From contig OX442315.1 in assembly GCA_949358305.1 (NCBI GenBank), positions 1,674,001-1,738,000 on the forward strand: 64,000 bases of DNA, given 5' to 3'. The position numbers and the translations under genes are program-made. Of this stretch, positions 19,073 through 56,769 are shown piece by piece. Each line of letters starts with the position of its first letter. Position 1 is the stretch's first letter. Source of the stretch: Strigamia acuminata. Lineage: Eukaryota; Arthropoda; Chilopoda; Geophilomorpha; Linotaeniidae. The notes below the pieces were generated by a model. That model worked only from the letters and a program-made list of their open reading frames with translations. It ran no database searches and was not told where the DNA came from.

Positions 19073-19686
19073 ATGGCCCTCAGACTCAAGTCACGTTTCC
19101 GAATGAAGATCCGTCGATTGGTAAGAAATCATAATGCAGCCAAAGACACCAATTACGCTTTCTTAAGCATTGTGCGAAAGATAAACGATGGTAAACTCAA
19201 TTGGCTTTTCCGCTTCTTCTGGAGCTTCATTCTTATGCTGAGCATACTTCTCTGCATTGCATTGGTCTACGACCGATTTGCTTACTACTGGTCCGAACCG
19301 TCAATTGTCAATATTTACAGCCGAGAGGTCAACACCATTAACTTTCCAAGTCTCTTCATGTGTACGACCACTACCCCTGAGTTTACGGAGTTTGCTTTGA
19401 AGGTTGATAACGGCAAGATTCCTGAAACTCTGTCGATGTCATGCATGGCACCGTTAAATAACTACAATGGATTCGCGAGTGCATCAAAACTGTGGTCCCT
19501 GTTGAACAGTAGTCGTGTTATTGACAGCATTCACTTTCTCCAAGTAATGACAAAAATCTTTCTCTCCATCTTTGTTCAATTTCATAATTTTGACAAATTT
19601 CTTTTTTGAGAATCCATTCGAAAATCTGAAAGAAAATTTAAAGTATCTGTCCACTCCTTTAGGGTTGTGTGTATCGATCAGGATTG
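19073..19686 (+). CDS. Gene A exons 1-2: N-terminus, TM1, start of ectodomain 1
   Basis: Exon 1 (19073-19543, 157 codons, phase 0) starts at an ATG in gccATGG context. It ends caa|gtaatg, followed by a 67-base intron ending ttttttgag. Exon 2 (19611-19686) holds the motif TPLGLCVSI, matching the DEG/ENaC G-x-C block, and ends in phase 1 at attg|gtaag. Its frame continues exactly into exon 3 at 35945. Confidence 0.85.
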
Positions 19687-22600
19687 GTAAGAAAATCTCA
19701 TTTTAGTTTATTTATGTAAATTTCTCAATTTTCATTCCCGAGTGATCTAACTTTAAATTTTTTATTTAAGTCTATTGTCGTTGTGATAGGAACCTTCTCA
19801 GCTGAAAAAAGGACTCGCCTTATTGCTACAGTCAGGGGCAGATCTACATAAGGACAAAATAGGGCTTGAGCGCAGGGCCCCCAAACTCTAGGGAACCCCT
19901 AAATTCTAGGGGACCGCCAACACAATGCAATGTACTAAAAAAAACAAAAAAACATAATGCTTCATATAGAAAGTATAATTGTTTTATTTTATTGTTAAAA
20001 ATTTTGATAAAGTGCCCCCAAAAAGCTAGATCAGCCCCTGACTACAGTATGAATACAGCGTAACAGTCAAGAACCTCGAGTCAAATCATGTTTTGATTTT
20101 GTATCCTCCGGCATTTGCATAATGAAAGTGGACGGTTGAACTGGGTTCGAATCTGGCTGCCATTTTCGACGCGGACGAGTGCGGGCCTGTCGCGAGCTGA
20201 TTCACACGAAATAAATAAGCTAGGCTTAATTATAAAAGATCGGGAGCAAAAAACCTGAGCTCCATTTTAATGAAATAACATGAAAAGACTGGCTCAAAGC
20301 CAAAACAACAACGATACAGCTTGTGCTCACGTAATTATGAATTGTTAACAAAATATGCGGCGACCTCTTGCGAGCGAGGCGCGTACTACGAATAGATCAC
20401 AAGTGGGCCAAAATTGCCCCAAAACCCCCAAAAAGCACAGGAAAATACATGAATAAATACAGTTTAATCCCTCAAAGCCCTTATGATAAAAAAACAGCGT
20501 TAAAACCTCCGAAAACTTCCAAACGAACACATTTCTACGATTAGGCTTAATATCTCGACACTAAACACAAACGACGGTTGCCCGGGCAACCCTCCGAATT
20601 GATACGAGTACAGGGAAAATAAAACCACGAACTGCACTAGCAACTTAACGCTAAAATAACACGAAGAGAGATAAAAAACTCGAAGAACCGTTGCGAATAA
20701 CTTCTAAAACCCAAATACTTCGAATACTGATAAACGAACTTTGAAGATACTAAACCGAAACCGAAACTCCTCCGAACTCTGGCAAAGCAGGTAAACCGAC
20801 TGTCCGCTTCCCGCATTCTTACCAACGAACCGGAACTACGACCACAACAATTCTCAATTTACTCGAAAAGAATCTTAAACGTCAACCAATCATACAAAAC
20901 AAACTCTTGAGATTCGCGTAAGACAAAACCGCTAAAAACTCCCACTGTTGCGCTCGCAACACCATGTGAGCTGAGAGGGAGAAGGATTCCGTTGTTTATA
21001 AGCTTATTTGTATTTCGGTGCCTTTCTTTTCTTTTCGATTGCATTTACGCACCTGTGTTTAAGTTTCTGTTTTGCCGCTCCCAAGTTGCATAACTGGAAG
21101 CGGCGGCCATGTGGATAATTGTATAATGTTGAGTTTGAAGCTAGGTTCACACTAGTGTTCACACTATATGGAACACCTGTAGGGCAGGTGTGAACAGAGC
21201 TGTGTGATGATTACAAATCGATAGTTATCAATGTTCACCATAGATGGCGCTGTTTAACCAACGCGCGTATTTCAAACTCGGTTAAAACTAAAAAGTGTGA
21301 TAAATAATTATTTAGACACGGTGAATAAAATATAACTATTTTATTCGACATAAACTAAGTATTAATTACTTGATGATGTTGATTCTATCGAATCAATATC
21401 CACATTACTTACCTGTCGAAGGGAACCAATCGGACCCTTCTGGACCCCAACTGGGCCCATCTGGACATAGTCATATATTAGGTCCGGACTAGTGACCCAC
21501 GAATCCATCGATTCGTACGCTGATTGGCTGTCGCCAATCTAGTAGTTCTACAGAACTATATAAGCTCCAGTTTCTCACCCACCCACTGGCTTGATTTTTG
21601 ATAACTGAACTTGTATATTGTCTGTAGTTGAATTGTTATCGTTTGATTTCATTATTCTCTATCGACACATCAGGCCACCTCAGTTCTCCACAATTAGTAT
21701 TCATTACTATTTTGTTATTGCTGTTGTAGGGCCTTTTCGGGAAGGCTAACTCCGGTAATAGACATGCATTCGCATGAAATGGCCCCGTAACGTTAGCCAG
21801 CTGTTCTACGGGACAGTAGGACTTCGTACGGTGGCTTAATATAACGGTCGTATACAGTACGACCTTGCTAAATGAAAGTAGGTCCCTCAGCTAACTGGCC
21901 ACAGTCCGCTGCAGGATGGTTGTTGTAAACAGCCCACGCAGGTTCCCGTCTTTCTACGATTGGTCCTTCCGCTCGTTAAAAGTCGGTAAAGGCCTAATGC
22001 ACAGGTAACACGCCGGGTTGGTAGCCCGTGAGTAATATCTAAAGATGTTGCGATAAAACAACTACCTGGATAATGGTAATCCAACGGCAGTGGCCGATTA
22101 ATATTTTACCCGGTGCTTGATCTGCTGATCCCGTCATCGTAAGGCATGCTGGCGGATGGGGGAGTCAAATCCTCCCGCGATGGTTCTCTCGACCGTCGTG
22201 ACGGTCCCCGCCCCATCATACCCTCCGGGTTAGTAACCCGTGAATGATATAAAATATATCATGTTAAACAAATTACTCGGGCATTGGTAATCCTGTATTG
22301 GCAATATCTTTTAGACCCGGTAAGTCCATAGAAATGTTTACCTGGTGGTTGGTACCACCGATAGCGAGTTAAAGCACACAATTAAATACTCGGCGCCTGA
22401 TCACGAGATCTTGTCGTCGTAAGGCATGCTGGCGGATGGAGTCTCAACAACTCCCGCGACGTTCTCTCAATTGTCGTGACGGTCCCCGCCCAATTAATAT
22501 TTATACAACAATTCATTTGTTGTATTCCACTAATTACTTTACTATTATTCATTTGGAACAATGGAATATTCTGCCGAATATTCCTGTTTATGCGAAGGAC

Positions 22601-25600
22601 TCTTCGCATATTTAGATAATCGATGCTGCGGACCAAATACGTCTCCGTAGCGATATTTGTGACGATGCCGCAAGTCAGCCGTATCCCTCTGGCTTCGCCC
22701 GGATCCTCAACCAGTTGATGCCGCCCGTTTACACGCGTGAAGAACCCATTTTTTGTTATCATTAATATTTAGTAATAAATATGTTAAGTCACACTAAAAC
22801 TGTAAGTTACTTCTACTTGATTACATATTCATGTTTGTAAAGGCTTCCGTAGCTTATCTCGGTTAGGTTGTTGTTAAACTTAGCAACGTTTTGTTTAAAC
22901 CGATTATTTATCTATCTTAAAAGGACTAATAAATTAGCCCAAAAGTAGAATCGTCACAAGTGGAGGTTCTACCGAGATAGGCTGCCAAATTTTAAATAAA
23001 ATTTGAATTTTTGCATGTCTATGATGGATTCGAGTAGTGTAACGTTTATGGTGATTTTTGTGTGTAAAATAAATTTCGTTTGAGATTTATAAGTGTTTAA
23101 TATATTTTATTCTGTTGTAGAACTTCTCGCAAGATAATAAGTGTCACTCACTTTATTCTGTTTTCTTCCGCAGTGGAAATTATTTGTTTTAACAAAATAA
23201 TAATTTCTACCGCGTGGTCAGGCCTAAAGGCCCAGCCCGAGAACGGAAAAATCTTGCCCGAACTTGTTGAAGTTGGTTCCGCCCGGGTACCGTCATTTCG
23301 TCGTCGACAATCTGACAAAACCACGCGGTCGGGCCTAATTTTGAAAAGTTGACTTTTGTTGGAATTCTTAAAGAATTCTATCAATTTAACAGTTGTTTTA
23401 ATTTTAGAAATATTTTTCACATGTATTTTGCTTGAGACTTCAAGTTAAACCTAAATTTATTTGCCTAAATAAATTAGAAAGAAAATTGACGCTTTTCGAA
23501 GGAATTAAAATTTATATTTTATTTCAAAGTGGGTTTACCTTATTTTACAGACTTGATCTACATTAAAATGTTGGTTAAAAATTGTGATCTCAAGCCATTG
23601 AAATCGAATTATACGAATGGAATACCATTCGAATTTTAGCGAAGAAGAATTCTCGCTGTTGTGTTGCCTAGCAACCAGTGTTGTGCAGAAAAGCCGTCGA
23701 TTCAAACGAATTGGCGCGTCTTTTGAAATTACGAGTTTTAAAAAAAACTGTAAAAAATTCCATAAAGGTGATCATTCATTTATTAATAAATGCGGTGATA
23801 TTTTAAAATATTTTGAAAAGTATCCATTTTGTTTGGTGACTACGTCATAACACTGGAATCTGTCAAGATTACGGTTCCACGAACTTGATGATTTCCACCA
23901 ATCTCGGACGAGATTGGACTCTCGCGAGACTAGCGTTGATATTTGACCAATCAGAGAGGTGTATCGAAGTACCCTTACTTCCTTTCGAACTAGTGTGACC
24001 ACTGCTTCGTTTGCGATCCTCCTGAACGTTTGCAACTTCATCGTTATCTCTCAGACTTAGGAAATTTTCTTAGTTTTAAGTTTAGTTATGACTAATAACC
24101 AGCATCACATGAACACCCGTGGTAAGGAAAGAACTTGTTTGACCGGTGGAATGAATCTATCCGGGTTTATGCCTGTTCCTAATGGAACTGAAGAAGTGGA
24201 AAACCACGCGGTCCATAATGGCGTTTCAAATGAAACAACCGGACCATCTGGAGAGAATAGAGCTCCACGTGAACCTACTCCGCCTGGAGAAGAGGAATGC
24301 CTTCCTGAAGGTTCTCATTTAGGCCGAGGCGGTCTATTATTTTGTCAGGATCACGGTTTGAACCCAAACCAATTTAGATCTTTGACCGAAGTGTTAGATT
24401 TTATACACGCGCCTCGTGCTACGTCGGAGCAACCCCATTCCCCAGCCAGCCAAAGATTAAATAATTTTAGTCCCACTCCTTCAACGCCTATTTCTAGATA
24501 TAGAAATAAAAATGCACAACCTCCTCGTCAAGATCAGTCGAATTTGACTCCAGGAGATTTTAATCGTGCGTTCCAACAACGATTACGAGCGAATAATTTC
24601 GCTCGCAACCAACAAAGAGGATTTACAAATCCAGAGAACTTTGAGAATACGTTCAACAGAGCGAATTTGGGTCCGCCTAATATGGCCAACCCTAATCCAA
24701 GTTTTCTAAACGGATCAAATAGTTGTCCGAATCTCGCTGGAAATTTGAACCCAAATTCAGGTGCGACAAGAGGTCCAAACCGTCGTTTTGACCCAAATTC
24801 TAGATTTGCAAACAATTCTAGTCCAGCACCTAACATACAAAGGGGTCACCCAGTTCCTCCGAACTCGAATAACCCGAATAATCCTTCTACTGGAACTCCA
24901 GGAAATTCAAATAACTATTTGAATCGTCCGAATTTTGGTAATCAAGAAAGTTCGAACAACCGTCCGAATTTTGACAATCAGGGTAATTCTAATAATCATT
25001 CGAATTTTGGGAACCAAGGCAATTCGAATAACCATTCGAACTTTGGTAACCACAGTAGGTCAAATCAAGGAGGGTCGAATAATTTCAACCCCAATAATGG
25101 TGGCTCAAGTCAAAATAACTCGAGTCAACCTAATAATGGCGGATCGTCAAATGACAATTCGCGCCCCCCCAGTAGCTTTGGAATGACGGCTGATGACCTC
25201 GCGTCAATTGCCACGACCATGCATAAATTAATGCAAGCTGGAAAAAGTTCCGCCACTGTCCCTCAAACTAACTGTTTGAAACCACCAGATATCCCTGTAT
25301 TCTCCGGAAAAGCAGAAGAAAGCGAACGCTTTCTCAATATTGTAAAAAATGTCGCTTTCCTGCGAAACATGTCACTCGATGACATGCTTGTTAAAGGCGT
25401 GGCCGGTTATTTAACCGAGCAAGCGCATGGTTGGTTTCATGAAAGGAGAGAAGATTTCATATCTTGGGAAGTATTTGAACAGGCGTTCAAAGAACGGTTT
25501 GTAGCCACTCGACAAGAGCGGACGAACCAACTAACTAAGTTGAAACAACTGGAAACAGAAAGTCTTTACGACTTTATGCACAAATATTACCAGTTATGGA

Positions 25601-28600
25601 TATTGCAAGACAGTCTTGATGCAAAAGGGGCTGGTTGTCTTTTTATCGGGAGTGTAACTCCTGCTAATGATTTGCTCTTGCATACGCAAGGCATAGCGGA
25701 TTTACCTCTGACAGAGATTTATACCGTTATAACAAAAAATAAAGGCTTGTACAGTCGTACAGCTAATGGAGCAAGGGAAAATATTTCCAATCCAGTTGTT
25801 TTCCCACCTCGGAAAACTGACACACGTCCTCAGTCGAAGACAAATGCTAAATCTTTAACTTTGGATTCACAAGAACAACTTAATATTTGTGAGGAAGAGT
25901 TACCTGAGGAGTGCGAGACTGTTTATTTAATAAATGGAGTATTAGATCAGACCAGACGTGGTCAATTAGTTTGTTACCACTGTAAGAAACCAGGACACAT
26001 GCGTCGAGAATGTCCAGATTTAAAACCACGTGCAAATCTCAACTCTGAAGAGTTGCAAAAACGAAGTATGCCGGATTCCCCGACTGTGGATCCTACTTCT
26101 AAACGTCCCAATAATAGGTGGATAACTCAAGAAGTGTTGGATGCAACACTAGATGCTAAACTTGATGCGAAATTAAATACTTTTGAAAATAAGTTACAAA
26201 CTTCGCTGACTAATTCGTTGGCAGAAATGGTCAAGACTTTGATCAAGCCCGAATCGACAGATTCAAGTGCTACTAGTTCAAAAAACTAGATCCGGGGGAC
26301 GAAGGTTTATTCCATCCCCCAGAAGTGGCTAATGCTACGTCGGAATCTTTATTTATGGATGTAGACACAACTTGTCTTGAAGTAGCCACTAGTCATAGTG
26401 GCGGAGTAGAGGAAAATTTGCAAGAAATGACAGAACAATTAAAAAATCTGACATTATTTCCTCACAAGTGTTACACGAAGAAATTCTGTAGACTTCGCCG
26501 ACTCAACAGAGTCATAGGCGGCAATAATTTGCACAATATTACTTTAGGTAATAATAAAGATGATCCTCGAATGAAGATCACAATTGGTGGGCTCACCTAT
26601 AACGCGCTCATGGATACAGGAGCATCTCAATGTTACATTGGAGAACAACTTTTGTCTGAAACTCAGGCTCTGCCGGAATTTTTGCAAGAGGCTCCCAGAA
26701 ACATGATGGTGAATGCTGTAGGCGTAGCACACAAGCCTGTCGGACAAATAACTTTGTGCGTGCAATGGGCTGATGAATTTACACCAATGAATTTCATCGT
26801 TTTAGCAAAACGAGTTTGTGGCTTGATACTTGGTCACAATTTCATGCGCAGACAGAAAATTAGTCCGCATCCACATCTACAAGAGTTCTCTTGTGCAGAT
26901 AAACCTAATTGGTCCGCCCCTTATGAGTCGGAAGAAGCCAATTTGGCACTCGCCCCGTTAAATCGAATTACTTTCGATTATTTAGGACGGTCGTCCACTC
27001 TCAACTCAATTGAGTTAACAGACACTCCTGTGTTGACATGGGATGAAAAATTAGTTGAGGAGAGCGACTGCACTCCAGAACAACGACTAGCACTTCGCGA
27101 AGTGGTTAAATCGATACCGAATGTATTTCGTGATCAAGTTGGGTGCACTAACGTGACCCAACATCGTATTAAGTTCAAAGAAGGGCATTCATTGCCCAAA
27201 ATGCAGTATAGAATGTATAACCCGGCCAAGAGAGCCATTATGACCAAACTTGCTGCAGAACTTGAACAGGATGGACTTATTGAAAAGGCCAAAGGGCCCT
27301 TCATAAGTCATCCCGTCATTGTTGCGAAGTCTGACGGCTCGTATAGGATGTGCATTGACTATCGGTGGCTAAATGCCATCACTGAAGTCGAAGTAATACA
27401 AATGCCAAGTATTGACCTTTTGTTGCACAATACTGGTCCGGCAAAGTATTTTACGTCTATTGACCTTGTTAAAGGTTACTACCAAGTCGAAATGTGTAAG
27501 GAAGATCGTCCAAAAACGGCGTTCTATACGCCAAACGGCCCTTATCAATTTGTGCGAATGCCGTTCGGCCTTTGCAATGCGCCTTGTACTTTCCAGCGTC
27601 TGATGGAAGGCATTTTAGGCTCGGCTTTGCAAGACTACGCGTTAGTTTATTTGGATGACGTAATTGTGTATTCAGATAATTGGGATGATCATCTCAAACA
27701 TGTTCGAGATGTTTTGGAGAGGCTTAACCAAGCCAACATGACAATAAATAAAGCGAAATCTCGTTTTGGGCGTACAGAATTAAAATTCTTGGGCCACTGG
27801 ATTAAACCCGAAGGTCTCTTCGGTGATCCCGATAAAATATCGGCGATCATGAAATTTCCCACCCCCACGTGTGCTAAAGACATTCAGCGCTTTCACGGCA
27901 TGACTAACTTCTTCAGGAAGTTTGTTCCAAATCACGGAACTATTGCCGCACCATATACACGTATGATGAATGAGAAAACTCCATTTGAATGGGGAGATGA
28001 GCAGACAGAAGCTTTTAATAAAATTAAAGAGCTACTTTGTGGTGACAATTGTCTACACAAACCAGATATGACGTTACCATTTGTTGTCATGACTGACGCT
28101 TCACATGAAGGCTTAGGAGCTGTCCTTTGCCAAGACGTCGATATATTCGATGAAAAGAAGCAGAAAAACATTTCTGTACCCAAACCTGTAGCTTATGCAA
28201 GCAGAGTTTTACGTGGAGCAGAGAAGCGTTATACAACGCCGGAACTTGAATGTCTCGCAGTCGTGTGGGCTATTGATCGATTTAAACCATATCTCGAATA
28301 TGGTACGTTTACCTTAGAATCAGATGCTGAAGCACTGAAATGGTTGATGCGAACGCCTGAACCATCTGGGAAATTTGGCCGATGGGCCTTAAGAATCCAA
28401 TGTGGAAATTTTAAAATTGTTTTTCGAAAAGGTGCTGCTAATCAAGTTGCAGATGCACTTTCTAGAGCCCCACTAACAGAGGAAGACATTCCTCTTCGTG
28501 ATCATGTGGAACCTGTTGAAATTAAACAATATTGGCCTGAATGGGACGGAAATCCTTCTGTTTCATTAAATCGTGCCCCAGAAAAACGAGAATATTTGGC

Positions 28601-34600: not shown

Positions 34601-37600
34601 TCTAAAGATGTTGCGATAAAACAACTACCTGGATAATGGTAATCCAACGGCAGTGGCCGATTAATATTTTACCCGGTGCTTGATCTGCTGATCCCGTCAT
34701 CGTAAGGCATGCTGGCGGATGGGGGAGTCAAATCCTCCCGCGATGGTTCTCTCGACCGTCGTGACGGTCCCCGCCCCATCATACCCTCCGGGTTAGTAAC
34801 CCGTGAATGATATAAAATATATCATGTTAAACAAATTACTCGGGCATTGGTAATCCTGTATTGGCAATATCTTTTAGACCCGGTAAGTCCATAGAAATGT
34901 TTACCTGGTGGTTGGTACCACCGATAGCGAGTTAAAGCACACAATTAAATACTCGGCGCCTGATCACGAGATCTTGTCGTCGTAAGGCATGCTGGCGGAT
35001 GGAGTCTCAACAACTCCCGCGACGTTCTCTCAATTGTCGTGACGGTCCCCGCCCAATTAATATTTATACAACAATTCATTTGTTGTATTCCACTAATTAC
35101 TTTACTATTATTCATTTGGAACAATGGAATATTCTGCCGAATATTCCTGTTTATGCGAAGGACTCTTCGCATATTTAGATAATCGATGCTGCGGACCAAA
35201 TACGTCTCCGTAGCGATATTTGTGACGATGCCGCAAGTCAGCCGTATCCCTCTGGCTTCGCCCGGATCCTCAACCAGTTGATGCCGCCCGTTTACACGCG
35301 TGAAGAACCCATTTTTTGTTATCATTAATATTTAGTAATAAATATGTTAAGTCACACTAAAACTGTAAGTTACTTCTACTTGATTACATATTCATGTTTG
35401 TAAAGGCTTCCGTAGCTTATCTCGGTTAGGTTGTTGTTAAACTTAGCAACGTCTTGTTTAAACCGATTATTTATCTATCTTAAAAGGACTAATAAATTAG
35501 CCCAAAAGTAGAATCGTCACAGCTGAAACAATTGATGTTGCATCTGGCCAATCAGATAGTTTCAATGAAACCTGGAGTTGGTTATAGAACTAGTTCCAGA
35601 ATCCGAAAATAGCGGCCTGTTTGCATGTGGCAAAGTCTCGCCAACCAGACGTGAATCGACGAGAGTTGGAGTCGATCGTGATTGGTTGGCCGTAAGACGT
35701 TTTCTTGTGTTGCGTTGCTTAATTCAACTTGGAGTTGATGCAGGAATTGGCATCAACGTCAAGAATTTTTTGACACAAGCAGCTTGTGTTGCATCAGTTT
35801 TCTTGCGTTGGGTCGAGTGTGAACACAAGTGTGAACCTAGCTTAAGGACGGTAGAGCAATTTCCTTTAAGCGTTGGTGACATGGGCAAGAGCAACTGTCA
35901 CTAATTCTAAGCAATATTCTTACATTTGAATTTGTTTTGTTTAGATCAACAAGTTCATTTATCAAATCCAAAATTGCAATTGGTTTTTAAATTTGACGAA
36001 AAGAATCTGGGGAACAGATGTGCAATTCCACAGCTGAAGGTAAATTTATAGTAAAGGCGGAGCTGTCATTAGACCGACAAACACTGAAGTTTCATTAAGT
36101 ACACTACAGTCGTTTCTTGTTTATTCTGCAATTTTGAATTCACAAATAATTTAGCTTATTGTGAGCTATTTGAGATGACTGCTGTGGAAGTATTCCTGTA
36201 CATTTAGGTTAGGCCAGGGGTCGTCCAGGGGTTGTCCAGGGGTCGTCCAGGGGTCGTCCAAGGGTCGTCCAGGGGTCGTCCAGGGGTCGTCCAGGAGTCG
36301 TCCAGGGGTCGTCCAGGGGTTGTCCAGGGGTCGTCCAGGGGTTGTCCAGGGGTCGTCCAGGGGTCGTCCAGGAGTCGTCCAGGGGTCGTCCAGGGGTCGT
36401 CCAGGGGTTGTCCAGGGGTTGTCCAGGGGTCGTCCAGGGGTCGTCCAAGGGTCGTCCAGGGGTCGTCCAGGGGTTGTCCAGGGGTTGTCCAGGGGTCGTC
36501 CAGGGGTCGTCCAGGGGTCGTCCAGGGGTTGTCCAGAGGTCGTCCAGGTCCAAATTGACAAAAAAGATCAAATTGACAAAAAAGACTTTTTTGACCAAAA
36601 AGACCTTTTTGACCAAAAAGACCTTTTTGACCAAAAAGACCTTTTTGACCAAAAAGACCTTTTTGACCAAAAAGACCTTTTTGACCAAAAAGACCTTTTT
36701 GACCAAAAAGACCTTTTTGACCAAAAAGACCTTTTTGACCAAAAAGACCTTTTTGACCAAAAAGACCTTTTTGACCAAAAAGACCTTTTTGACCAAAAAG
36801 ACCTTTTTGACCAAAAAGACCTTTTTGACCAAAAAGACCTTTTTGACCAAAAAGACCTTTTTGACCAAAAAGACCTTTTTGACCAAAAAGACCTTTTTGA
36901 CCAAAAAGACCTTCTTGACCAAAAAGACCTTCTTGACCAAAAAGACCTTCTTGACCAAAAAGACCTTTTTGACCAAAAAGACCTTTTTGACCAAAAAGAC
37001 CTTCTTGACCAAAAAGACCTTCTTGACCAAAAAGACCTTCTTGACCAAAAAGACCTTTTTGACCAAAAAGACCTTTTTGACCAAAAAGACCTTTTTGACC
37101 AAAAAGACCTTTTTGACCAAAAAGACCTTTTTGACAAAAAAGACCTTTTTGACCAAAAAGACCAAATTGACCAAAAAGACCAAATTGACCAAAAAGACCA
37201 AATTGACCAAAAAGACCAAATTGACCAAAAAGACCAAATTGACCAAAAAGACCAAATTGACCAAAGAGACCAAATTGACCAAAAAGACCAAATTGACCAA
37301 AAAGACCAAATTGACCAAAAAGACCAAATTGATCAAAAAGACCAAATTGACCAAAAAGACCAAATTGACCAAAAAGACCAAATTGACCAAAAAGACCAAA
37401 AAGACCAAAAAGACCAAAAAGACCAAAAAGACCAAATTAACCAAAAAGACCAAAAAGACCAAATTGACCAAATTGACCAAAAAGACCAAATTGACCAAAA
37501 AGACCAAAAAGACCAAAAAGACCAAAAAGACCAAAAAGACCAAAAAGACCAAAAAGACTAAATTGACCAAAAAGACCAAATTGACCAAAAAGACCAAATT

Positions 37601-40600
37601 GACCAAAAAGACCAAATTGACCAAAAAGACCAAATTGACCAAAAAGACCAAAAAGACCAAATTGACCAAAAAGACCAAAAAGACCAAATTAACCAAAAAG
37701 ACCAAATTGACCAAAAAGACCAAATTGACCAAAAAGACCAAATTGACCAAAAAGACCAAATTGATCAAATTGATCAAAAAGACCAAATTGATGAAATTGA
37801 TCAAAAAGATCAAAAATTAATTCTTAATTCTTTTTACATTAGTTGATACCATCAAAAGAAGATCGCTTGGATTTCACAGCAGCAAATGATTATTCATTAC
37901 CATCTAAATATTCAGTACTAAGCCTTGCATCTATTCAAAAAGTATTTTTTCAAAACATTTGTCAGGAGAGATGCTAATTTTCTTTTGTACAGTATGTATT
38001 TATGAACAAAACCAACCGACAGTGCTCGTCAAAAGAGAAATTTGCTTTGTGTAAAGCAGATTGCATACAAAAGGAATTGAAAAAATTGAATTTGAAGTGC
38101 AGGTTAGTTAGCGACATCCTTTTAGCGACGGGGTTGTTTCGGAGACTTCTTGTAACAAAACAAAATGCAAGGATAAACGAGAAAAACGATGCACAGCTTA
38201 TGTGAATACAACCCTGGGACCAGGGGACAATAATCTATAGAATTAAATTTAATCACTTAATAGAGTATAGTTCAAGCATGGTGCTTGAACCACAGTGTAC
38301 TCTGATCAACTACAAAAGTGGCCTATTACCCATTGTCCGAGCCATTTCACTTGTGTGGTGACACAAAAAAATAGATCCAAACACCGGAATTGCATTAGAT
38401 GTACAAACATTGTAGTCGATTACCTATAAAATTCAAAAATTGTTTGCTTTCCTGACAAAGCAACCAGTAAACTAAAGAAACATCTATTTTAAAGTAAAAA
38501 TGGCATAAAACTGTATTTCATGAATGGAAAAAAACATTTTATTATAAAATGCAATTAAAATTAAATCATTTTAATCATTATAATACTGTCAAAAATTTAA
38601 AAAAAATATGTAACTACTTTTTCTGATGATAGTACACAGTCTACAGTTAAGAGTGAAAAGACTCGCCCAATGGGTAATAGGACACTTTTGTAGTGTATCA
38701 GAGTATAAGACATACGGTTCAAGACTGAATGCTTCAAAATTTGAGAAAATCTGACTAAAATTTAGCGCTATAAACGTCTTAAAGTACCGATCAAACAATG
38801 CTTTGTAAACGTGCAGAAGTACAAAACGATTAACCAATCCGCAGTGTATGCGGTTAAATTTGGAAAAAAATTGATTGTCTTGTATTTTCTCGCAGTACCG
38901 TACCTCTGGGCCAGCACTAAAGCAGTGCAGTAGCAAAAATTAAAAATTAAAAATTAATAATGTCGCTTTTCCAAAATTGCGGTTACCGGGTTGCCCCAAA
39001 AGCGTATAAGTTTAGTGCTTTTAGCGATTGCTATCATAATGCTAACTATACAATAATCATTTTTTGACACAGAATGCCGTTCATGTCGGACTTTGATGAA
39101 TTGCCGGAATGCGTAACAAAATATGATGAAGTGTATATAAAAAGTATGCATACCGTGTTTGAACTTTGGAAAGGCAATGCTTCAACCGACACTTGTAAAT
39201 GTATCGCTCCTTGTAAGAAAGAAATAATCGCCAATCGTATGATAGTAGAAGAGCAATCTGGATCAACCGTGCGAATCAAAGTGATCGATTCGATAAGAAC
39301 CGCCAAAGAAGTTCCGGCGTACGGTCTCATTGCGTTTTTCTGCGATTTAGGAGGAAACATCGGACTCACTCTTGGAGTGTCTTGTCTCATGATTGCTGAA
39401 ATGACCATCATGTTAATCACTTTGACTCGTAGACATATAAAGAGCTATAAGAAGAAACAGTTGTCTCGCTCCACCTTCTTTGAAGACAAAGTAGAGAAAT
39501 GTCTTAAGAAATGTGTAGACACGAGCAAAGATGATTTTGCCACCAGTTTTCAACTATCGGGTCTGCAGTACATCTTGACCCGACAAAACAAAAGTCATGC
39601 CAAAAAGTACTTGTGGCTTTTCCTCATTATTTCATCAAGTTTTGTATGCGGCTTTCAAATTTATGATCGCATTGCGTATTTCTTCTCCTATCCAACTTCT
39701 GTGTCTGTAAAGTTGAATGCAGTTGAAAACATCGAACTTCCAAGTGTTGTTCTATGCTTGGACAGTGGTAAAGTGGTCATGAAAAAGAAGCAATACATGA
39801 AAGCGAATGGAATCCCTGGTTGTCCTGATGATTTTGATATGTTAAACATGGTGAATGTCAATGTATCTCTTGACCAATTGTGGATTTGGTCTAGTAGGGG
39901 TTCCAACTTTATGCCTGCAGCAAAAAATGTATGTAATTCAAACAGTTATAAGTTACTTAAAAGCTGTTTTATTCGCCATTGGATTGTACTAACCGAAAAG
40001 GTCTATAACCGGAATCTAATCCTCTGCACATTTTTATGAAGTGTATTCAACACATCCTAAAAATATGCAGAGGATTCATAAATCTTGAATCCAATAATCT
40101 TGAATCCTGAATTCATAAATCAAGCCTATGATCACAGCCTCGACACAAAAAACGAGCAAAATCAACTGAAGGCCAGTGGCGTAGCTAGGAGGGGGCGGGG
40201 GGGGGGGGTGGGTAGCCCCGGGTGTCACCCAGAAAGGGGTGACACCAATGTAGGGATGACACAGTATAGGCCTTTTTGGATGAAAAACGGCCATTTTTAC
40301 TCTAAAAAACGGCTAAAAATGACGATTTTTACTCTGAAAAGCGGCTAAAAATGACATTTTTTACTATGAAAAACGCTGTAAAAACAGCTGTAGAGATAAT
40401 TTTAGTAGGTTATTTCAAAAATTTTGTAGAAAAATATTTTTAGTAAATTATGTTTTTAGACTAATTAGGCCATGCTCTACCACTTTCTAATTGGAAATTT
40501 TGCTCTAACCTGATTGGTTTAGAAGTTTAGAAGTTAGCAAGTGAATGACCTTGAAAATGACCTTTGAAATCAAATTTGAGAATGCCATCAGATTTGCAGT

Positions 40601-42621
40601 GAATGATTTCCTATATGAGTTTTTTTTCAGTTTTCTGATATCTCAAGTATTTTGGAAATTACTTGGGCAACCAAGTTAATCCTCAATTAGCACACTTTAT
40701 TTGGTCATACTTGTAAGTGGAAAAGAGGAAACACAAAAGAAAGAAATAATTTATTTTGGAAATACATACAACATGATAAGTTTTAGGTTACAAAGTAGAG
40801 TAGACTAATGTTTCAGACCTTTTTTCTCAAAACTTTTCAGTAAAAAATAATTTTTTTAATAACAGTTCTAGACTAATTAGATGTTGCTCTACAACTTTCT
40901 AATTTACCTTTTTGCTCTATCTGTCACGGTTCTCGAGTTACAATATGGATGACCTTGAAGATTACCTCAGAGGTCAAATTGGATTGAATTGAATTTGAAT
41001 TTGAATTTGAATTGAATTTCCCTCGACATACTACCCTTACAATCATTTTTCTAAATCAACATCCAAAACGGTTTGGGAATTATTAACTGTGAACCAGACT
41101 TTCTGTATACTGTATACAATTTAGCGGAGTGACACCCGGCCGAGATTGAAAAAAAAGTTGATTTTAACTGATTTCGAGGGTGACACCATTGATATCCGCC
41201 CCGGGTGTCACCCATGCTAGCTACGCCTTGATATGATGGTGTAACAAATTCTAGAATTTTCCTCTTTTGAATTATGTTGCTATCTGGTGATAAACCCATA
41301 CATTTCCATACATTTCACAAGCTAGAAATATAGGATCTTTAGTCATTAATTTCTAGGCTTGTGAAATGAATGGAAATACAAATTTCCAAATCTAGTTTAC
41401 ATTAGCTCTCCATACATTTAACAAAAACTTACAACATCATCTTTCAGTGTTGAAAATTTAGAGAAATTCAACTTTGTAGAAAATGTTTCCCATTTCCTTC
41501 CCATTATATTTCCAAACTGAAATTTATCTTATTTCACCTTAAAACAGCTTTTAACGTAGAATAATTTTACTTAGTACCTCACTGTATTCGGTCGTTATTT
41601 AGGACATCGCTCAAACTACACCAGTTCCAATAAAGCTTGAACAATTTTCTACCGTTTTTGGCGTTTGTACAAAATTGAATCCAGGCAAGAAGGAAAAGGT
41701 TAGCCCATTAAAGATATGAATTTAAATATTTATTTGCACTCACTTTTAGAAATTACAAGATATTTTCCTGTATTTTCTGGCTATTCTGTCCACTTCATGA
41801 AAGCTTCTGGGAACTGCACGACTACAACAAAAGTTAGTGGGGAAGGAAGATCAGTATTTCTGTATACTTAATGCTTAATGCTTAATACAATTTCTTTTCT
41901 CCTCGTTTTTACATTTCCTCATCAAGATGTTTCCAATATCTCCTGCTAATGAATTTAGTTTGAAGACATACCTCCACATGCAAGACCCAGGAGTTTATCA
42001 AATTGTGTACACAATGCAAAAAGTATGAAATTACAAGTAATTTCCGAGGTATACGGAGATATACAGATATGCATTTTTTCAGTTAATCAGAAAAAACACA
42101 CCAAAGAATGTTTGTGTGGGCAAAAAGGAATACGCAGAATGTTTAAAAGCGTGTCAGGATGAAAGAATGCTGGCACCGCATCTTAGTTGCAAGTACAGAA
42201 TAACAGAACGCTAGTACAGTACCGGTAGTTAAACATATTGACCTTACGGAAATGTCTTTTCAGATTGCCCTTTATGAATTCAACGCTTGAGACTTGCAAA
42301 GACGCAAAATCAGCAAAATTGGTCAAACGGCAATATCTTTCGGTGATGCTTAAAACCGATCCGATCGTCGATTGCAACTGCACCAAATCGTGCATCGATT
42401 CAATTTATTATCCTGAAATGAAGCTGCTCATTGACTACGACTCGCCGGCCAATATGCTAATCATCACTGTTTTTCATAACTTTGAAGAAGTCATTGAAGA
42501 AATTTTGTTCTTTCCCTTTGTTAAACTTCTGTGTGACGTGGGCTCCAACCTGGGTGTTGTTGTTGGCATGTCAGTCATGTCATTTTTACACGACATCTTG
42601 CACGTTCTCAATTTAGGATGA
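19073..42621 (+). CDS. DEG/ENaC gene A: two channel subunits fused in one protein (811 aa)
   Basis: Predicted amiloride-sensitive-type sodium channel, plasma membrane. Eleven exons: 19073-19543, 19611-19686, 35945-36039, 37843-37941, 37993-38102, 39073-39928, 41603-41684, 41750-41832, 41927-42022, 42083-42192, 42264-42621. They sum to 2436 bases with no internal stop. Subunit 1 has TM1 at about residues 44-66, the post-TM1 motif FPSLFMC, a Cys-rich ectodomain ending CKCIAPC, and TM2 with DLGGNIGLTLGVS (selectivity-filter type G-V-S, about 385-387). A linker of about 60 residues leads to subunit 2: TM1 about 464-483, LPSVVLC, ectodomain, and TM2 with GMS (about 794-796), ending 15 residues later with almost no tail. 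The N-terminal His-Gly gating motif is altered in both halves (LSG in subunit 2). Intron 2 is 16.3 kb through transposon insertion. Intron 7 appears to be GC-AG. Splicing is inferred, not observed. Confidence 0.82.
19833..20040. mobile_element. hAT-type MITE
   Basis: The terminal inverted repeats are CAGGGGCAGATCTA and TAGATCAGCCCCTG. The flanking 8-bp duplications are gctacagt (19825-19832) and actacagt (20041-20048), which match at seven positions. It is 208 bp with no coding capacity, inside intron 2 of gene A. Confidence 0.8.
20041..21137. other. Intron 2 DNA of gene A, no gene seen
   Basis: Moderately AT-rich with short open frames of no recognisable family. A sequence near 20050-20130 is weakly similar to intron 2 of gene B near 49430-49500, so some is ancestral intron. 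Confidence 0.4.
21203..22958 (+). repeat. 5' LTR of gypsy-2
   Basis: 1756 bp, with the TATA-like box actatataagctcc at about 21551. Internal subrepeats: gtaaggcatgctggcggatgg recurs 280 bases apart (22138 and 22418), each followed by a cgtcgtgacggtcccc hairpin-like block. The 126-codon minus-strand frame inside it is present in both LTRs only because the LTR is duplicated. Confidence 0.93.
22961..22978 (+). promoter_or_regulatory. Primer-binding site, tRNA-Gln type
   Basis: TGGAGGTTCTACCGAGAT lies two bases after the 5' LTR. From memory it matches the complement of the 3' end of eukaryotic tRNA-Gln with one mismatch. Confidence 0.65.
22979..24087 (+). other. Gypsy-2 5' leader
   Basis: No convincing gene. 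This AT-rich leader precedes the gag ATG. It may hold the packaging signal and a donor for a spliced RNA, but no single donor stands out. Confidence 0.5.
24088..26289 (+). CDS. Gypsy-2 Gag (733 aa)
   Basis: Structural protein that would assemble the element's particles. It starts at the ATG 24088. Residues about 100-370 are low complexity, rich in Asn, Pro, Ser and Gly, with NRPNFGNQ- and NHSNFGNQ-type repeats. The capsid-like retrotransposon-gag domain lies around 400-540 (GWFHERREDFISWEVFEQAF, then KERFVATRQER). A CCHC zinc knuckle, CYHCKKPGHMRREC, lies near residue 630. The C-terminus has a short charged coiled-coil-like stretch. The frame is intact and ends at TAG 26287-26289, immediately after a slippery heptamer. 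The long Asn-rich N-terminal half is unusual for the family. Confidence 0.9.
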   Translation: MTNNQHHMNTRGKERTCLTGGMNLSGFMPVPNGTEEVENHAVHNGVSNETTGPSGENRAPREPTPPGEEECLPEGSHLGRGGLLFCQDHGLNPNQFRSLTEVLDFIHAPRATSEQPHSPASQRLNNFSPTPSTPISRYRNKNAQPPRQDQSNLTPGDFNRAFQQRLRANNFARNQQRGFTNPENFENTFNRANLGPPNMANPNPSFLNGSNSCPNLAGNLNPNSGATRGPNRRFDPNSRFANNSSPAPNIQRGHPVPPNSNNPNNPSTGTPGNSNNYLNRPNFGNQESSNNRPNFDNQGNSNNHSNFGNQGNSNNHSNFGNHSRSNQGGSNNFNPNNGGSSQNNSSQPNNGGSSNDNSRPPSSFGMTADDLASIATTMHKLMQAGKSSATVPQTNCLKPPDIPVFSGKAEESERFLNIVKNVAFLRNMSLDDMLVKGVAGYLTEQAHGWFHERREDFISWEVFEQAFKERFVATRQERTNQLTKLKQLETESLYDFMHKYYQLWILQDSLDAKGAGCLFIGSVTPANDLLLHTQGIADLPLTEIYTVITKNKGLYSRTANGARENISNPVVFPPRKTDTRPQSKTNAKSLTLDSQEQLNICEEELPEECETVYLINGVLDQTRRGQLVCYHCKKPGHMRRECPDLKPRANLNSEELQKRSMPDSPTVDPTSKRPNNRWITQEVLDATLDAKLDAKLNTFENKLQTSLTNSLAEMVKTLIKPESTDSSATSSKN
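26280..26320 (+). promoter_or_regulatory. -1 ribosomal frameshift signal, gag/pol of gypsy-2
   Basis: The heptamer AAAAAAC (26280-26286) is in register as TCA AAA AAC and abuts the gag stop TAG. Seven bases later GGGGGA (26294-26299) can pair with TCCCCC (26315-26320), a suitable stimulatory stem. Shifting -1 enters the pol frame at 26286, which is open from that point. Confidence 0.8.
26286..30445 (+). pseudogene. Gypsy-2 Pol, integrase broken near 29205
   Basis: The pol frame opens at 26286. Protease: ALMDTGASQCYIG and LILGHNFM. RT: GPFISHPVIVAKSDGSYRM, FTSIDLVKGYYQ, catalytic YLDD (YLDDVIVYS). RNase H: VMTDASHEGLGAVL and LESDAEALKWLM. The integrase HHCC finger is complete (CHGHPLSGHAG then SCTHCAQYK). 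Shortly after NPWEC the frame changes: the first frame ends at 29261 and the rest continues in another frame (readable from 29105, ending 30445) with IFVIIDNCTKFVEI, VSDNGKQF, NPTERAN and a GPW-type end. The block that should carry the first catalytic Asp, between NPWE and YIFV, is missing, so a deletion plus frameshift is inferred. RT and RNase H look intact; integrase should be dead. Confidence 0.88.
30446..31506 (+). other. Gypsy-2 spacer between pol and accessory ORF
   Basis: AT-rich with no gene. It contains a purine tract ccgggggacaag (30519-30530) resembling the one at the 3' LTR, plus two motifs shared with gypsy-1: gtgtattataagcgtga (from 30998) and tttaaagaaactaaaagaa (from about 31249). 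It ends in an acceptor-like tract tttatttgcgtctgcag immediately before the ATG at 31507. Confidence 0.5.
31507..33027 (+). CDS. Gypsy-2 accessory 3' ORF: SR-rich, Cys-cluster protein (506 aa)
   Basis: I do not recognise a family. The ATG at 31507 directly follows ctgcag, a good 3' splice site, so a spliced subgenomic RNA is likely. The N-terminus is basic and Ser-rich (KHRSKRSHRRHRHES, then Ser runs). The middle is Pro/Ala-rich. Residues about 230-300 hold a Cys cluster (CPFCVGCGWCC, CPNCRGRK, CWAHCPKC), probably zinc binding. The C-terminal third is acidic. There is no signal peptide or membrane segment, so it is not an envelope although it sits in the env position. It is much richer in G+C than the neighbouring gag and pol, which suggests a separate origin or codon constraint. 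Confidence 0.75.
   Translation: MGSGKHRSKRSHRRHRHESSSSSSTSSSDEQRRSAERAYMRAQPIPTAPASMYALTPLQLATLNWLSVHPDGFPLDLNAMMQAPSTSAQPTVYESAQMAPLAQVAYPPANVINVPLAPHSPEFRQPTASVAPTVANPSNAAAPTVAGQPTSVAHLPAGAESSASEYGWNELPPGALHYSEPVSRNREYRAANKARKKDEKARLRKEQCERDMAAGIPHDNIVTDQATETICPFCVGCGWCCGASAGSSLMRCPNCRGRKTRPLSEPWRKEVQPHVVKGIKPNEKRCWAHCPKCRLFLNSRGEAVYIDPRFLTWARAEANAGVRVELLRQSPPPSEDSEVSTETVQAVESTGSEVVEEFVRPRTMSRGRGCLTLDRAREIAKVQRTNILARGRARKLQQAVEASPKPVEDPPAVVTDVSSAPIASKSETSDDAQFEDAEELLSVVDFVAELLEDLPFPPPSPEEIEAPEEAVFSAVSTEATEESDFLTSAEVEKPEVKDPTEVEKKD
33028..33765 (+). other. Gypsy-2 3' region with polypurine tract
   Basis: AT-rich, no gene supported. It ends in the purine tract accgggggatg (33755-33765), which abuts the LTR start TGTGATGA. 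Confidence 0.6.
33766..35521 (+). repeat. 3' LTR of gypsy-2
   Basis: 1756 bp, matching 21203-22958 with one difference noticed. It is followed by the second copy of gctg. Confidence 0.93.
35945..38102 (+). CDS. Gene A exons 3-5: ectodomain 1
   Basis: Exon 3 (35945-36039; enters phase 1, leaves phase 0) follows tttgttttgtttag and encodes LSNPKLQLVFKFDEKNLG. Exon 4 (37843-37941, 33 codons) follows tttacattag and ends caaaaa|gtattt. Exon 5 (37993-38102, 110 bases) follows tcttttgtacag and encodes a four-Cys block (RQCSSKEKFALCKADC, then LKCR). Each exon has an equal-length, equal-phase partner in gene B (51031, 51717 and 51868). Confidence 0.82.
36214..36550. repeat. 11-bp minisatellite
   Basis: Tandem ggggtcgtcca with a few variants (gggttgtcca, ggagtcgtcca). 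It lies in intron 3 of gene A. Because 11 is not a multiple of 3 and the unit lacks stops, open frames run through it on both strands; these are artefacts. Confidence 0.95.
36551..37815. repeat. 18-bp/9-bp minisatellite in intron 3 of gene A
   Basis: About 1.26 kb of gaccaaaaagaccttttt units to about 37155, then gaccaaattgaccaaaaa units with 9-bp gaccaaaaa half-units. The 18-bp period is stop-free in several frames, which creates open frames of more than 400 codons on both strands. The array ends about 27 bases before the acceptor of exon 4. The corresponding intron of gene B (51126-51716) lacks it. Confidence 0.95.
38290..38715. repeat. Inverted repeat in intron 5 of gene A
   Basis: The left arm has tactctgatcaactacaaaa then cctattacccattg. 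The right arm (about 38650-38710) carries its complement, caatgggtaatagg then ttttgtagtgtatcagagta. Arms are about 60 bases with a 300-base AT-rich loop; this is a MITE or foldback remnant. Confidence 0.55.
39073..39928 (+). CDS. Gene A exon 6: end of subunit 1 fused to start of subunit 2
   Basis: A single 856-base exon bounded by ttgacacag and a gtatgt donor. It encodes, without a stop or intron, the C-terminal Cys block (DTCKCIAPCKKE), TM2 with GLTLGVS, a basic/charged linker (TRRHIKSYKKK, then FFEDKVEKCLKKC), the N-terminal FATSFQLSGLQYI block, TM1 and the post-TM1 LPSVVLC motif of the next subunit. In 38 linker codons (39488-39601), gene B differs at five synonymous and two non-synonymous codons, so the junction is under protein-level constraint. 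Confidence 0.88.
40174..41230. mobile_element. Non-autonomous DNA element in intron 6 of gene A
   Basis: The ends are inverted: CAGTGGCGTAGCTAGGAGGG on the left and CCATGCTAGCTACGCCTTG on the right. Just inside both ends lies ccccgggtgtcaccc. A short tandem array (acggctaaaaatgac-type) lies near 40280-40370. There is no coding region. The superfamily is uncertain. Confidence 0.55.
41603..42192 (+). CDS. Gene A exons 7-10: ectodomain 2
   Basis: Exon 7 (41603-41684) encodes the FGVCTK block and ends ccag|gcaaga, a GC donor. Exon 8 (41750-41832) follows cacttttag. Exon 9 (41927-42022) follows cctcatcaag and encodes DPGVYQIVYTMQK. Exon 10 (42083-42192, 110 bases) holds the Cys block ECLKACQDERM. 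The GC donor is the only choice found that joins the phases, and the same site exists in gene B. Confidence 0.78.
42264..42621 (+). CDS. Gene A exon 11: final Cys block and TM2 of subunit 2
   Basis: It follows gtcttttcag. It encodes LETCKDAKSAKLV, the CNCTKSC block, and TM2 with CDVGSNLGVVVGMS, then stops at TGA 42619-42621 with no cytoplasmic tail. The acidic residue normally found after the filter serine block is not at its usual place. Confidence 0.85.
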
Positions 42622-43149
42622 AAACATTTTAAATTTTTATCCTAAACTTTTAATATTACTTAGTCAAGCTATTTTTTCTATTGTTTTGGTTTTAGTTCTA
42701 GCTCTAGTCTAGTTCTATTCTAGAAGTTTTAATTCAAGTATTATATCACAAATCTTAATGTAGTAATACTACTAATAGATCGTGTATTGGCTGCTGAATG
42801 CAAATGTAAATGTAAATTAAAGTAAATACAAGAAATAGTAGAATAGTGGCCCCCAAAGGGCATGTTGATACAGTAATCTTATTGGAACTTGTCCACTGTT
42901 GTTTATTTTGTGTCACCTCGATTTATGGCAATCCCGTCTGAGGGTCTCCACCATCAGGGGGAGTCGCCTGTAGTCGGTTAAGGCAAATTTAATAGTCTCA
43001 CTGAATATATCTATCACCCAATAAATTGTAATGTGTTTTGATCTCCAGTTTGATATTTGTCTAGCTTTATTCAGTCAGTAATTCACTTTAGCTCGCACAA
43101 TGAAGGCAATGCTTTAATTTGAGGCACAACATCGCAGAAGAGTGAGATG
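42622..43149 (+). other. 3' UTR of gene A, shared with gene B
   Basis: This flank is repeated almost unchanged at 56770-57275, including gtggcccccaaagggcatgt. An AATAAA (43020-43025) matches AATAAA at 57147-57152 in the copy and is the likely polyadenylation signal. The two copies part near 43149. Confidence 0.6.
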
Positions 43150-43735
43150 TGTGGTGATTCCGAATCACCTGAAGTAATTTAGCACTATTAACCATGTTGC
43201 GTGAATGTGCCACCAGGGCTAATAACTGAAGAGACTAGATTGGCTAGTCCTCATTTACTGCGATACTGCATAATCAGTCCAGATTTGCATATTGCGTCAC
43301 TTCGGGTTAGTATATAAGTCCGCGTTTTGACCGGAAGCAACACTACATTTAAAGTTTACTTTTCAGCAAGAGCATCATTTTTCTCACCTTTCAGGCCGTT
43401 TTTCTGGGTTGATCGAGGACCGATGCCCGCTGATTTTCAACTGTACAACCCAGAGAATTCGTTTAACGTAGTCAATCTACGTTCCGACGAATAATTCACA
43501 CAAAGTGATTTTCGCCCTGGTTTGATCGAAACGCGTGTTTACCCTAGACTAAAACAGAAGCCACGTGTAAGGCTGAATAATCAACGGCGATTATTCAGCA
43601 ACAAATCATATTCGCAGGAAGAATCCAAGACCAGATTATTAATTCAAGTGTATTATTTTTAGAAAGTTAGAAATAAAGTTAGAGCAGAAAAAACTGCATT
43701 AGAGACGTTACCGTAATTAAACATCACTGCCCACA
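43150..43735 (+). repeat. Probable solo LTR
   Basis: It begins TGTGGTGATTCC exactly where similarity to the gene B flank stops. It has a TATA-like agtatataagtccg at 43311 and ends about cactgcccaca. No target duplication was found, so limits are tentative. The start resembles the LTR start at 59251 (minus strand). Confidence 0.45.
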
Positions 43736-48672: not shown

Positions 48673-49286
48673 ATGGCCTTTAAGCTCAACTCGCGTTCTC
48701 GAATGAAAATCCGTCGATTGGTAGACAAGTATAATGCACCCACAGATACCAACTACGCTTTCTTAAGTATCGTGCAAAAGATAAACGACGGTAAACTTAA
48801 TTTGCTTTTCCGCTTCTTTTGGAGCTCCATTCTCCTGCTGAGCATACTTCTCTGCATTGCATTGATCTACGACCGGTTTGCCTACTACCAGTCCGAGCCA
48901 TCAATTGTCAACATTTACAGCCGAGAGGTCAACACCATTGACTTTCCCAGGGTCAACGTGTGTACGACCACTACCCCCGAGTTTACAGAGTTTGCTTTGA
49001 AGGTTGATAATGGCAAGATTCCTCACACCCTGTCGATATCATGCATGGCACCGTTGATTAAGTACAATGCACACATGAGTTCATCAAAACTGTGGTCTCT
49101 GTTGAACAGTAGTCGTGTTATTGACAGCATTCACTTTCTCCAAGTAATGACTAAAATGTTTCTCTCTATTTTTGTTCAATTTCATAATACTGACAAATTT
49201 CTTTTTTGAGAATCCATCTGAAAACCTGAAAGAAAATTTAACTTATCTGTCCACTCCTGTAGGGCTGTGTGTAGCGATCAGCATTG
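48673..49286 (+). CDS. Gene B exons 1-2
   Basis: Exon 1 (48673-49143, 157 codons) starts at the ATG in gaaATGG and ends caa|gtaatg. Exon 2 (49211-49286) follows ttttttgag and encodes TPVGLCVAISI, leaving phase 1 at attg|gtaag. The intron of 67 bases has the same length as in gene A. Confidence 0.85.
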
Positions 49287-56764: not shown

Positions 56765-56769
56765 TATAA

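What the first reader, a model, noticed from the sequence alone, without database searches (positions are those of the whole stretch)
19073..42621. Concatenated DEG/ENaC channel: two full subunits encoded as one protein
Gene A (and its paralogue B) encodes TM1-ectodomain-TM2-linker-TM1-ectodomain-TM2. Exon 6 joins the GVS-containing TM2 of subunit 1 to TM1 of subunit 2 with no stop and no intron. DEG/ENaC channels are normally single-subunit proteins that form trimers. A natural tandem dimer would force fixed pairing and pose a stoichiometry puzzle (a trimer cannot be built from whole dimers without a spare half). I know of no described natural case, though I cannot search.
Basis: partly seen in the sequence, partly recalled or inferred. 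Interest (0 to 1): 0.93.

Follow-up and report, generated by a model that had tools for sequence, protein, structure and literature searches.

The report
Natural two-in-one ion channel gene
Two neighbouring genes in what looks like a centipede genome each encode two complete subunits of a sodium-channel family joined end to end in one protein, which is puzzling because channels of this family are built from three subunits.

Summary
Genes A (19073-42621) and B (48673-55588) each assemble into one 11-exon frame (811 and 810 aa); A's protein holds two near-complete PF00858 (DEG/ENaC) domains. Exon 6 carries TM2 of subunit 1, a linker of about 60 residues and TM1 of subunit 2 without a stop, in both genes. 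Two incomplete Strigamia maritima (centipede) proteins, 51-57% identical, cross the same junction, so an assembly error is very unlikely. The halves of gene A are 24% identical yet share five introns with identical phases, three at the same alignment column: an old internal duplication. The 39-residue linker core is 38/39 identical between A and B, dN/dS 0.03 against 0.42 overall at average dS. No conserved start codon precedes subunit 2. Nearest solved relatives are the single-subunit centipede channels BRTNaC1 and PDPNaC1. Subunit 2 has His where subunit 1 has the pore glutamate E18'. Most likely the tandem supplies two of three pore subunits and a separate protein the third; this assembly is inferred. 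There is no RNA evidence. Ten open-access library searches listed no such natural protein.

The parts
19073..19543 (+). Gene A exon 1: N-terminus and TM1 of subunit 1, start of ectodomain 1 (aa 1-157)
19611..19686 (+). Gene A exon 2 (phase 0 to 1)
35945..36039 (+). Gene A exon 3 (phase 1 to 0)
37843..37941 (+). Gene A exon 4 (phase 0 to 0)
37993..38102 (+). Gene A exon 5, 110 bp (phase 0 to 2)
39073..39928 (+). Gene A exon 6: end of ectodomain 1, TM2 of subunit 1 (GVS), linker, TM1 of subunit 2, start of ectodomain 2: the fusion exon
41603..41684 (+). Gene A exon 7 (phase 0 to 1), followed by a GC-AG intron
41750..41832 (+). Gene A exon 8 (phase 1 to 0)
   Evidence: tblastn only
41927..42022 (+). 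Gene A exon 9 (phase 0 to 0)
42083..42192 (+). Gene A exon 10, 110 bp (phase 0 to 2)
42264..42621 (+). Gene A exon 11: end of ectodomain 2, TM2 of subunit 2 (GMS), stop
48673..49143 (+). Gene B exon 1
49211..49286 (+). Gene B exon 2
51031..51125 (+). Gene B exon 3
51717..51815 (+). Gene B exon 4
51868..51977 (+). Gene B exon 5
52719..53571 (+). Gene B exon 6: fusion exon
54619..54700 (+). Gene B exon 7, followed by a GC-AG intron
54761..54843 (+). Gene B exon 8
54905..55000 (+). Gene B exon 9
55060..55169 (+). Gene B exon 10
55231..55588 (+). Gene B exon 11: TM2 of subunit 2 (GIS), stop

Best explanation
Genes A and B encode natural tandem-dimer DEG/ENaC subunits: one polypeptide with two complete two-TM subunits joined by a linker of about 60 residues, cytosolic by the usual topology of the family (a short tail of subunit 1 running into an N-terminus of subunit 2). 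They arose by tandem duplication of a six-exon single-subunit gene, after which the last exon of copy 1 and the first exon of copy 2 became one exon (exon 6); the fused gene then duplicated again into A and B. Shown here: gene structure, intact frames, the same junction in two centipede proteins, selection on the linker core, common descent of the halves. Inferred: the protein is made as one chain and works in a trimeric cation channel in which the linked pair fills two positions and a separate single-subunit DEG/ENaC fills the third, giving a set composition at the pore (half 1 with E18', half 2 with His there, third subunit variable).
For: One frame over 11 exons in both genes; two ASC domains in A; S. 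maritima P0001 and P0002 cross the same junction, with two ASC stretches each; linker core 38/39 identical, dN/dS 0.03, dS 0.33 against 0.31 overall; overall dN/dS 0.42 and no disabling change in either gene; 5 of 5 intron phases shared by the halves, column shifts 1, 9, 0, 0, 0 in gene A, while 9 of 200000 random placements had all five within 12 columns and 0 of these also matched all phases. BRTNaC1 aligns to half-profile positions 47-395 of 407 and PDPNaC1 is a homotrimer (PMC12714832 abstract). An artificial cASIC1 dimer assembles with monomers (PMC8341984 section 6); a dimeric ASIC1a construct has measured pH50 and amiloride values (PMC4529235 passages).
Against: No transcript, protein or recording. 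The 2+1 assembly is not tested and no partner subunit is identified; the window's own assembly could not be searched. The S. maritima sequences are incomplete models of unknown support (P0002 lacks the stretch of exon 3 and stops after exon 6; P0001 lacks the N-terminal part and most of what exons 7-10 encode), so the fusion there is seen at the junction, not end to end. The bounds of the linker core were chosen after seeing the alignment: Fisher p = 0.01 for it, p = 0.22 for the full 61-residue linker. Exon 6 holds potential cryptic splice sites, one acceptor-like AG of them in the linker of both genes.
Confidence: 0.6

Rival explanations
1. Self-contained twin channel: three tandem proteins carry six subunits and close exactly two trimers side by side, for example one of three half-1 subunits and one of three half-2 subunits, tied by three linkers.
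For: Stoichiometry closes without a partner. The halves diverged strongly (24% identity) and consistently: Glu at the 18' position in 4 of 4 half-1 sequences and His in 3 of 3 half-2 sequences that reach TM2. The linker is long, about 60 residues.
Against: I recall no precedent for DEG/ENaC. A His ring in place of E18' would predict poor Na+ selectivity of an all-half-2 pore (from PMC5449180, passages). Nothing here measures assembly.
Confidence: 0.15
2. One of the halves is a spectator: tandem proteins give a trimer from one type of half, and the other half hangs beside it as a regulatory, trafficking or tethering domain.
For: Half 2 lacks E18' in A, B and P0001 and ends 9 residues after that position in A and B.
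Against: The TM2-to-end segment of half 2 is under purifying selection (dN/dS 0.15) and keeps GxS; the region of residues 697-748 in half 2 is the other most conserved 39-residue place of the protein.
Confidence: 0.12
3. The locus yields separate subunits after all: alternative transcripts or splicing (exon 5 to 11, or exon 1 to 7, are phase-compatible and would give chimaeric single subunits), or cleavage of the linker.
For: Matching phases in both halves make such exon skipping frame-neutral. Exon 6 contains AG and GT sites scoring within the range of the real ones, up to 9.0 for acceptors (real ones 1.6-12.9) and 6.9 for donors (real ones 3.7-9.1); one acceptor-like AG lies in the linker of both genes (A 39546, 5.5; B 53192, 3.4).
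Against: Such sites are frequent by chance: 11.5% of all AG and 9.0% of all GT in the window reach the cut-offs used. Intron 5, a likely place for an alternative first exon of half 2, shows no A-B match by blastn at E 1e-5. No conserved Met in the linker. The linker core is among the two most conserved places of the protein. The linker should be cytosolic, away from furin-type proteases (recalled topology).
Confidence: 0.12
4. Assembly or gene-model artefact, or pseudogene.
For: None found; no RNA evidence is at hand.
Against: Same junction in two loci of the window and in two S. maritima proteins; intact frames although 614 of 811 aligned residues are identical, dN/dS 0.42.
Confidence: 0.02

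Closest known systems
BRTNaC1 (broad-range thermal receptor 1, centipede; PDB 8ymr-8ymx)
   Same: Best profile match in the PDB (E 1.7e-22), half-profile positions 47-395 of 407; similar size per half (431 aa against 398-412); same class of animal, by inference.
   Different: One subunit per protein; GIC at the selectivity filter, and Glu at the 18' position.
PDPNaC1 (Scolopendra subspinipes mutilans; PDB 9jf7)
   Same: Second best group (E 1.2e-19); 421 aa; no His-Gly in the aligned N-terminus, as here.
   Different: Single subunit, homotrimer (abstract of PMC12714832); nine exons according to the paper (section 7); GAS filter.
Strigamia maritima T1JF12 and T1IT41 (P0001, P0002)
   Same: Same TM2-linker-TM1 fusion; 51-57% identity to gene A or its half 1 by BLASTP.
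   Different: Incomplete models, named only 'Uncharacterized protein'; neither holds the whole tandem.
Engineered ASIC concatemers
   Same: Several subunits in one chain that form working or assembling channels (PMC4899722, abstract and methods passages; PMC5449180 passages; PMC8341984 section 6; PMC4529235 passages).
   Different: Made in the laboratory from ASIC subunits; here natural, with halves 24% identical and a conserved linker.
Two-repeat channels of tetrameric families (two-pore-domain K+ channels, two-pore channels); recalled
   Same: Natural fusion of duplicated subunits.
   Different: Two repeats divide evenly into a fourfold pore; they do not divide evenly into a threefold one.

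Membership tests
DEG/ENaC (PF00858) | ASC domain above Pfam's gathering score | tested here: met
   Whole protein A 122.9 bits, half 1 65.2, half 2 70.4, cut-off 23.6
DEG/ENaC (PF00858) | TM1 - cysteine-rich ectodomain - TM2 per subunit | tested here: met
   Hydrophobic segments at the four expected places in A and B (hydropathy windows); both halves of A cover nearly the whole Pfam profile. AlphaFold2 models failed (mean pLDDT 33), so the fold was not checked by structure.
DEG/ENaC (PF00858) | GxS motif in TM2 | tested here: met
   GVS in half 1 of A, B, P0001, P0002; GMS, GIS, GMS in half 2 of A, B, P0001; P0002 ends before it
DEG/ENaC (PF00858) | Pore glutamate E18' (numbering of PMC5449180) | tested here: inconclusive
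   Glu in 4 of 4 half-1 sequences, His in 3 of 3 half-2 sequences that reach TM2; position counted from the GxS motif
DEG/ENaC (PF00858) | N-terminal His-Gly motif (recalled) | tested here: not met
   Half 1 has NYAFLSI (A, B) or NYAFISI (P0002); half 2 has LSGL (A, B), LPGL (P0002), FPGL (P0001) near the aligned place. PDPNaC1 has none either, so it does not define this group
DEG/ENaC (PF00858) | One subunit per polypeptide | tested here: not met
   Two in one frame; membership by domain stands, the architecture differs
DEG/ENaC (PF00858) | Trimeric, amiloride-sensitive cation channel | not testable with these tools
   Needs expression, recording and structure
Centipede BRTNaC1/PDPNaC1 group | Closer to these than to other solved DEG/ENaC channels | tested here: met
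   E 1.7e-22 and 1.2e-19 against 7.4e-11 for the next (ASIC5) (profile of both halves together); no tree was built

The most novel reading that the evidence does not exclude
Three tandem proteins assemble into a closed double channel, two linked trimers with different pores (half-1 pore with a Glu ring, half-2 pore with a His ring), so that one gene encodes a two-pore complex with a built-in, possibly pH-dependent, partner pore.
Probability: 0.12. Interest if true: 0.95.

Novelty: new variant of a known kind. Interest (0 to 1): 0.74.

Why it matters
DEG/ENaC channels are threefold, so a natural twofold tandem is a concatemer that does not divide into the channel. If it is made as one chain, evolution has built what channel laboratories build to fix stoichiometry, and it gives a natural test of how a threefold channel uses linked subunits, which positions the halves take, and whether a pore with His and Glu mixed at E18' is favoured. 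It also shows a route, duplication plus in-frame exon fusion, by which a trimeric channel could start along the path that tetrameric channels took to two- and four-repeat forms.

Tried and rejected
Assembly error or pseudogene: rejected. Translation of half 2 from an internal Met: not supported, no conserved Met. A GT donor at the end of exon 7 of gene A, 14 bases downstream of the GC donor: breaks the frame, and gene B has no GT at the matching place; the GC donor keeps the frame in both. Structure prediction: P0002 alone and P0002 with P0001 and the two exon-6 translations gave mean pLDDT 32.8 and 33.0, so no fold search was made and nothing is drawn from them. Search of the window's own assembly for further DEG/ENaC genes and a possible third subunit: six attempts unanswered. 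Three protein database searches returned only the two S. maritima proteins (2 of 4766, 2 of 7997 and 2 of 4364 scored candidates); that tool needs shared 5-residue words and one search was capped, so this does not show that the family is limited to centipedes. Homotetramer: one report argues that ASIC1a is a tetramer at the surface (PMC4529235, passages), which would suit a tandem dimer; I set it aside because the nearest solved relatives have three chains per entry or are called homotrimers, but it is not excluded. Literature: ten searches of the open-access library showed no natural tandem DEG/ENaC protein in the listings seen; three listings were cut (20 of 467 papers, 15 of 123, 15 of 18), several searches were for relatives rather than for novelty, most subscription papers are not held, and the papers that first described BRTNaC1 were not read.

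Full report
What is there. The window holds two genes of the DEG/ENaC family in tandem on the + strand. I built each from stop-to-stop frames and from DNA conserved between the two loci, then read the sequence at the junctions and spliced them. Gene A has 11 exons from 19073 to 42621 and gives 811 residues; gene B has 11 exons from 48673 to 55588 and gives 810. Exon lengths agree in 10 of 11; exon 6 differs by one codon. All 20 acceptors are AG; 18 of 20 donors are GT, and the donor of intron 7 is GC in both genes. A six-frame search of the window with a profile of the halves gave 23 matched stretches at E up to 10, all on exons of A or B, covering 21 of the 22 exons; the remaining one, exon 8 of A, was matched by tblastn, which also matched nothing at E up to 1 outside the two genes.

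Two subunits in one frame. Pfam's ASC model matches in two stretches in the protein of gene A, and each half on its own covers nearly the whole model. Exon 6 runs from the end of ectodomain 1 through TM2 (GVS), about 60 linker residues, and TM1 of subunit 2, into ectodomain 2; it has no stop in frame and 20-23 stops in each other frame.

The fusion is shared by other genes. The three protein searches returned the same two proteins, both of the centipede Strigamia maritima, T1JF12 (P0001) and T1IT41 (P0002). Both are incomplete, but both run through TM2 - linker - TM1 in the same way, and Pfam finds two ASC stretches in each. P0001 also reaches the TM2 of subunit 2. Half 1 of A and B is 56-57% identical to half 1 of P0002, and half 2 of A and B 60% to half 2 of P0001, whereas half 1 and half 2 of one gene are about 24% identical: the duplication that made the halves precedes the split of these four genes. 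That the window comes from a centipede or near relative is inferred from these matches; it is not shown.

How it arose. The five introns of half 1 and the five of half 2 have the same phases in the same order (0, 1, 0, 0, 2). On the alignment of the halves of gene A the shifts are 1, 9, 0, 0 and 0 columns; in 200000 random placements 9 had all five within 12 columns and none of them also had the phases. So a six-exon gene duplicated in tandem, and the last exon of copy 1 and first exon of copy 2 became one exon. On the alignment of the halves as I cut them, the N-terminus of half 2 runs parallel to nearly the whole N-terminus of half 1, so little seems to have been lost at the join; the place of the cut was my choice.

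The linker is selected. Between A and B dN/dS is 0.42 overall. In the 61-codon linker it is 0.21; in its 39-codon core 38 residues are identical, with 6 synonymous and 1 non-synonymous change (dN/dS 0.03), and dS (0.33) is that of the whole gene (0.31), which argues against recent gene conversion there. Of 773 windows of 39 residues, 17 are as conserved, in two places: the linker core and the region 697-748. The core was delimited after seeing the alignment; Fisher's test gives p = 0.01 for it and p = 0.22 for the whole linker.

Could it still be two proteins? There is no Met between TM2 of half 1 and TM1 of half 2 in gene A or P0001; gene B and P0002 each have one, at different places. Intron 5, a likely place for another first exon, shows no match between the genes by blastn. 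Exon 6 contains AG and GT sites scoring within the range of the real splice sites, and one acceptor-like AG lies in the linker of both genes (A 39546, B 53192); but about one AG in nine and one GT in eleven of the window scores as high as the cut-offs used. Exon skipping from 5 to 11 or from 1 to 7 would keep the frame and give single chimaeric subunits; only RNA can settle this.

Relatives. Among solved structures the closest are BRTNaC1 (E 1.7e-22, half-profile positions 47-395 of 407) and PDPNaC1 (1.2e-19), both from centipede and single-subunit; the next is ASIC5 at 7.4e-11. PDPNaC1 is a homotrimer of 421 residues (PMC12714832: abstract and sections 7 and 13 read). Passages of PMC12804983 speak of three H352 residues interacting between subunits of BRTNaC1.

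Pore. Half 1 keeps the Glu that PMC5449180 calls E18' (passages read; position counted from the GxS motif) in 4 of 4 sequences; half 2 has His in 3 of 3. In A and B half 2 ends 9 residues later; the model P0001 runs on for some 20. In that paper, engineered trimers with one E18'Q in three had lower Na+ selectivity but kept the order Na+ > K+ > Cs+, and only two or three in three lost it. A pore with one half 2 and two Glu-bearing subunits would thus be expected to stay sodium-selective to a degree, which fits tandem plus a Glu-bearing single subunit. This is inference.

Assembly. A laboratory dimer of cASIC1 does assemble with separate monomers (PMC8341984, section 6 read), which is why I rank 2+1 first (0.6 for the whole statement, most of the doubt lying in the assembly). 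The twin trimer, the spectator half and hidden single-subunit products follow. Structure prediction failed and says nothing either way.

Novelty. Ten searches of the open-access library listed nothing on a natural tandem DEG/ENaC protein, with three listings cut. The domain is known, the architecture is a new variant as far as these searches and my recall go.

Noticed in passing
21201-35521: Intron 2 of gene A holds an LTR element, Ty3/Gypsy-like by its domains (LTRs 21201-22958 and 33764-35521, 1 mismatch in 1758), with gag, pol and integrase frames and a further 520-aa frame without Pfam match; a recent insertion in the sense direction that could affect expression of gene A.
   Followed up: partly
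36137-37842: Intron 3 of gene A contains 11-bp and 18-bp tandem arrays that leave several frames open on both strands.
   Followed up: no
41684 and 54700: Conserved GC-AG intron (donor CAG|GCAAGA) in both genes.
   Followed up: yes
42630-43150 and 56767-57273: Sequence downstream of both genes is 88% identical, as much as the exons, directly after gene A but about 1.2 kb after gene B; repeat or conserved non-coding stretch, not identified.
   Followed up: no
50138-50874: Intron 2 of gene B has clustered inverted repeats (arms of 100-121 nt, 84-87% complementary).
   Followed up: no
11771-14845 (-): A 1024-aa open frame on the minus strand, probably a Copia-type element by inspection only; further retroelement-like frames at 1130-2758 and 5211-10239 (no family search).
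   Followed up: no
46239-46634: A frame with a RING finger between the two genes.
   Followed up: no
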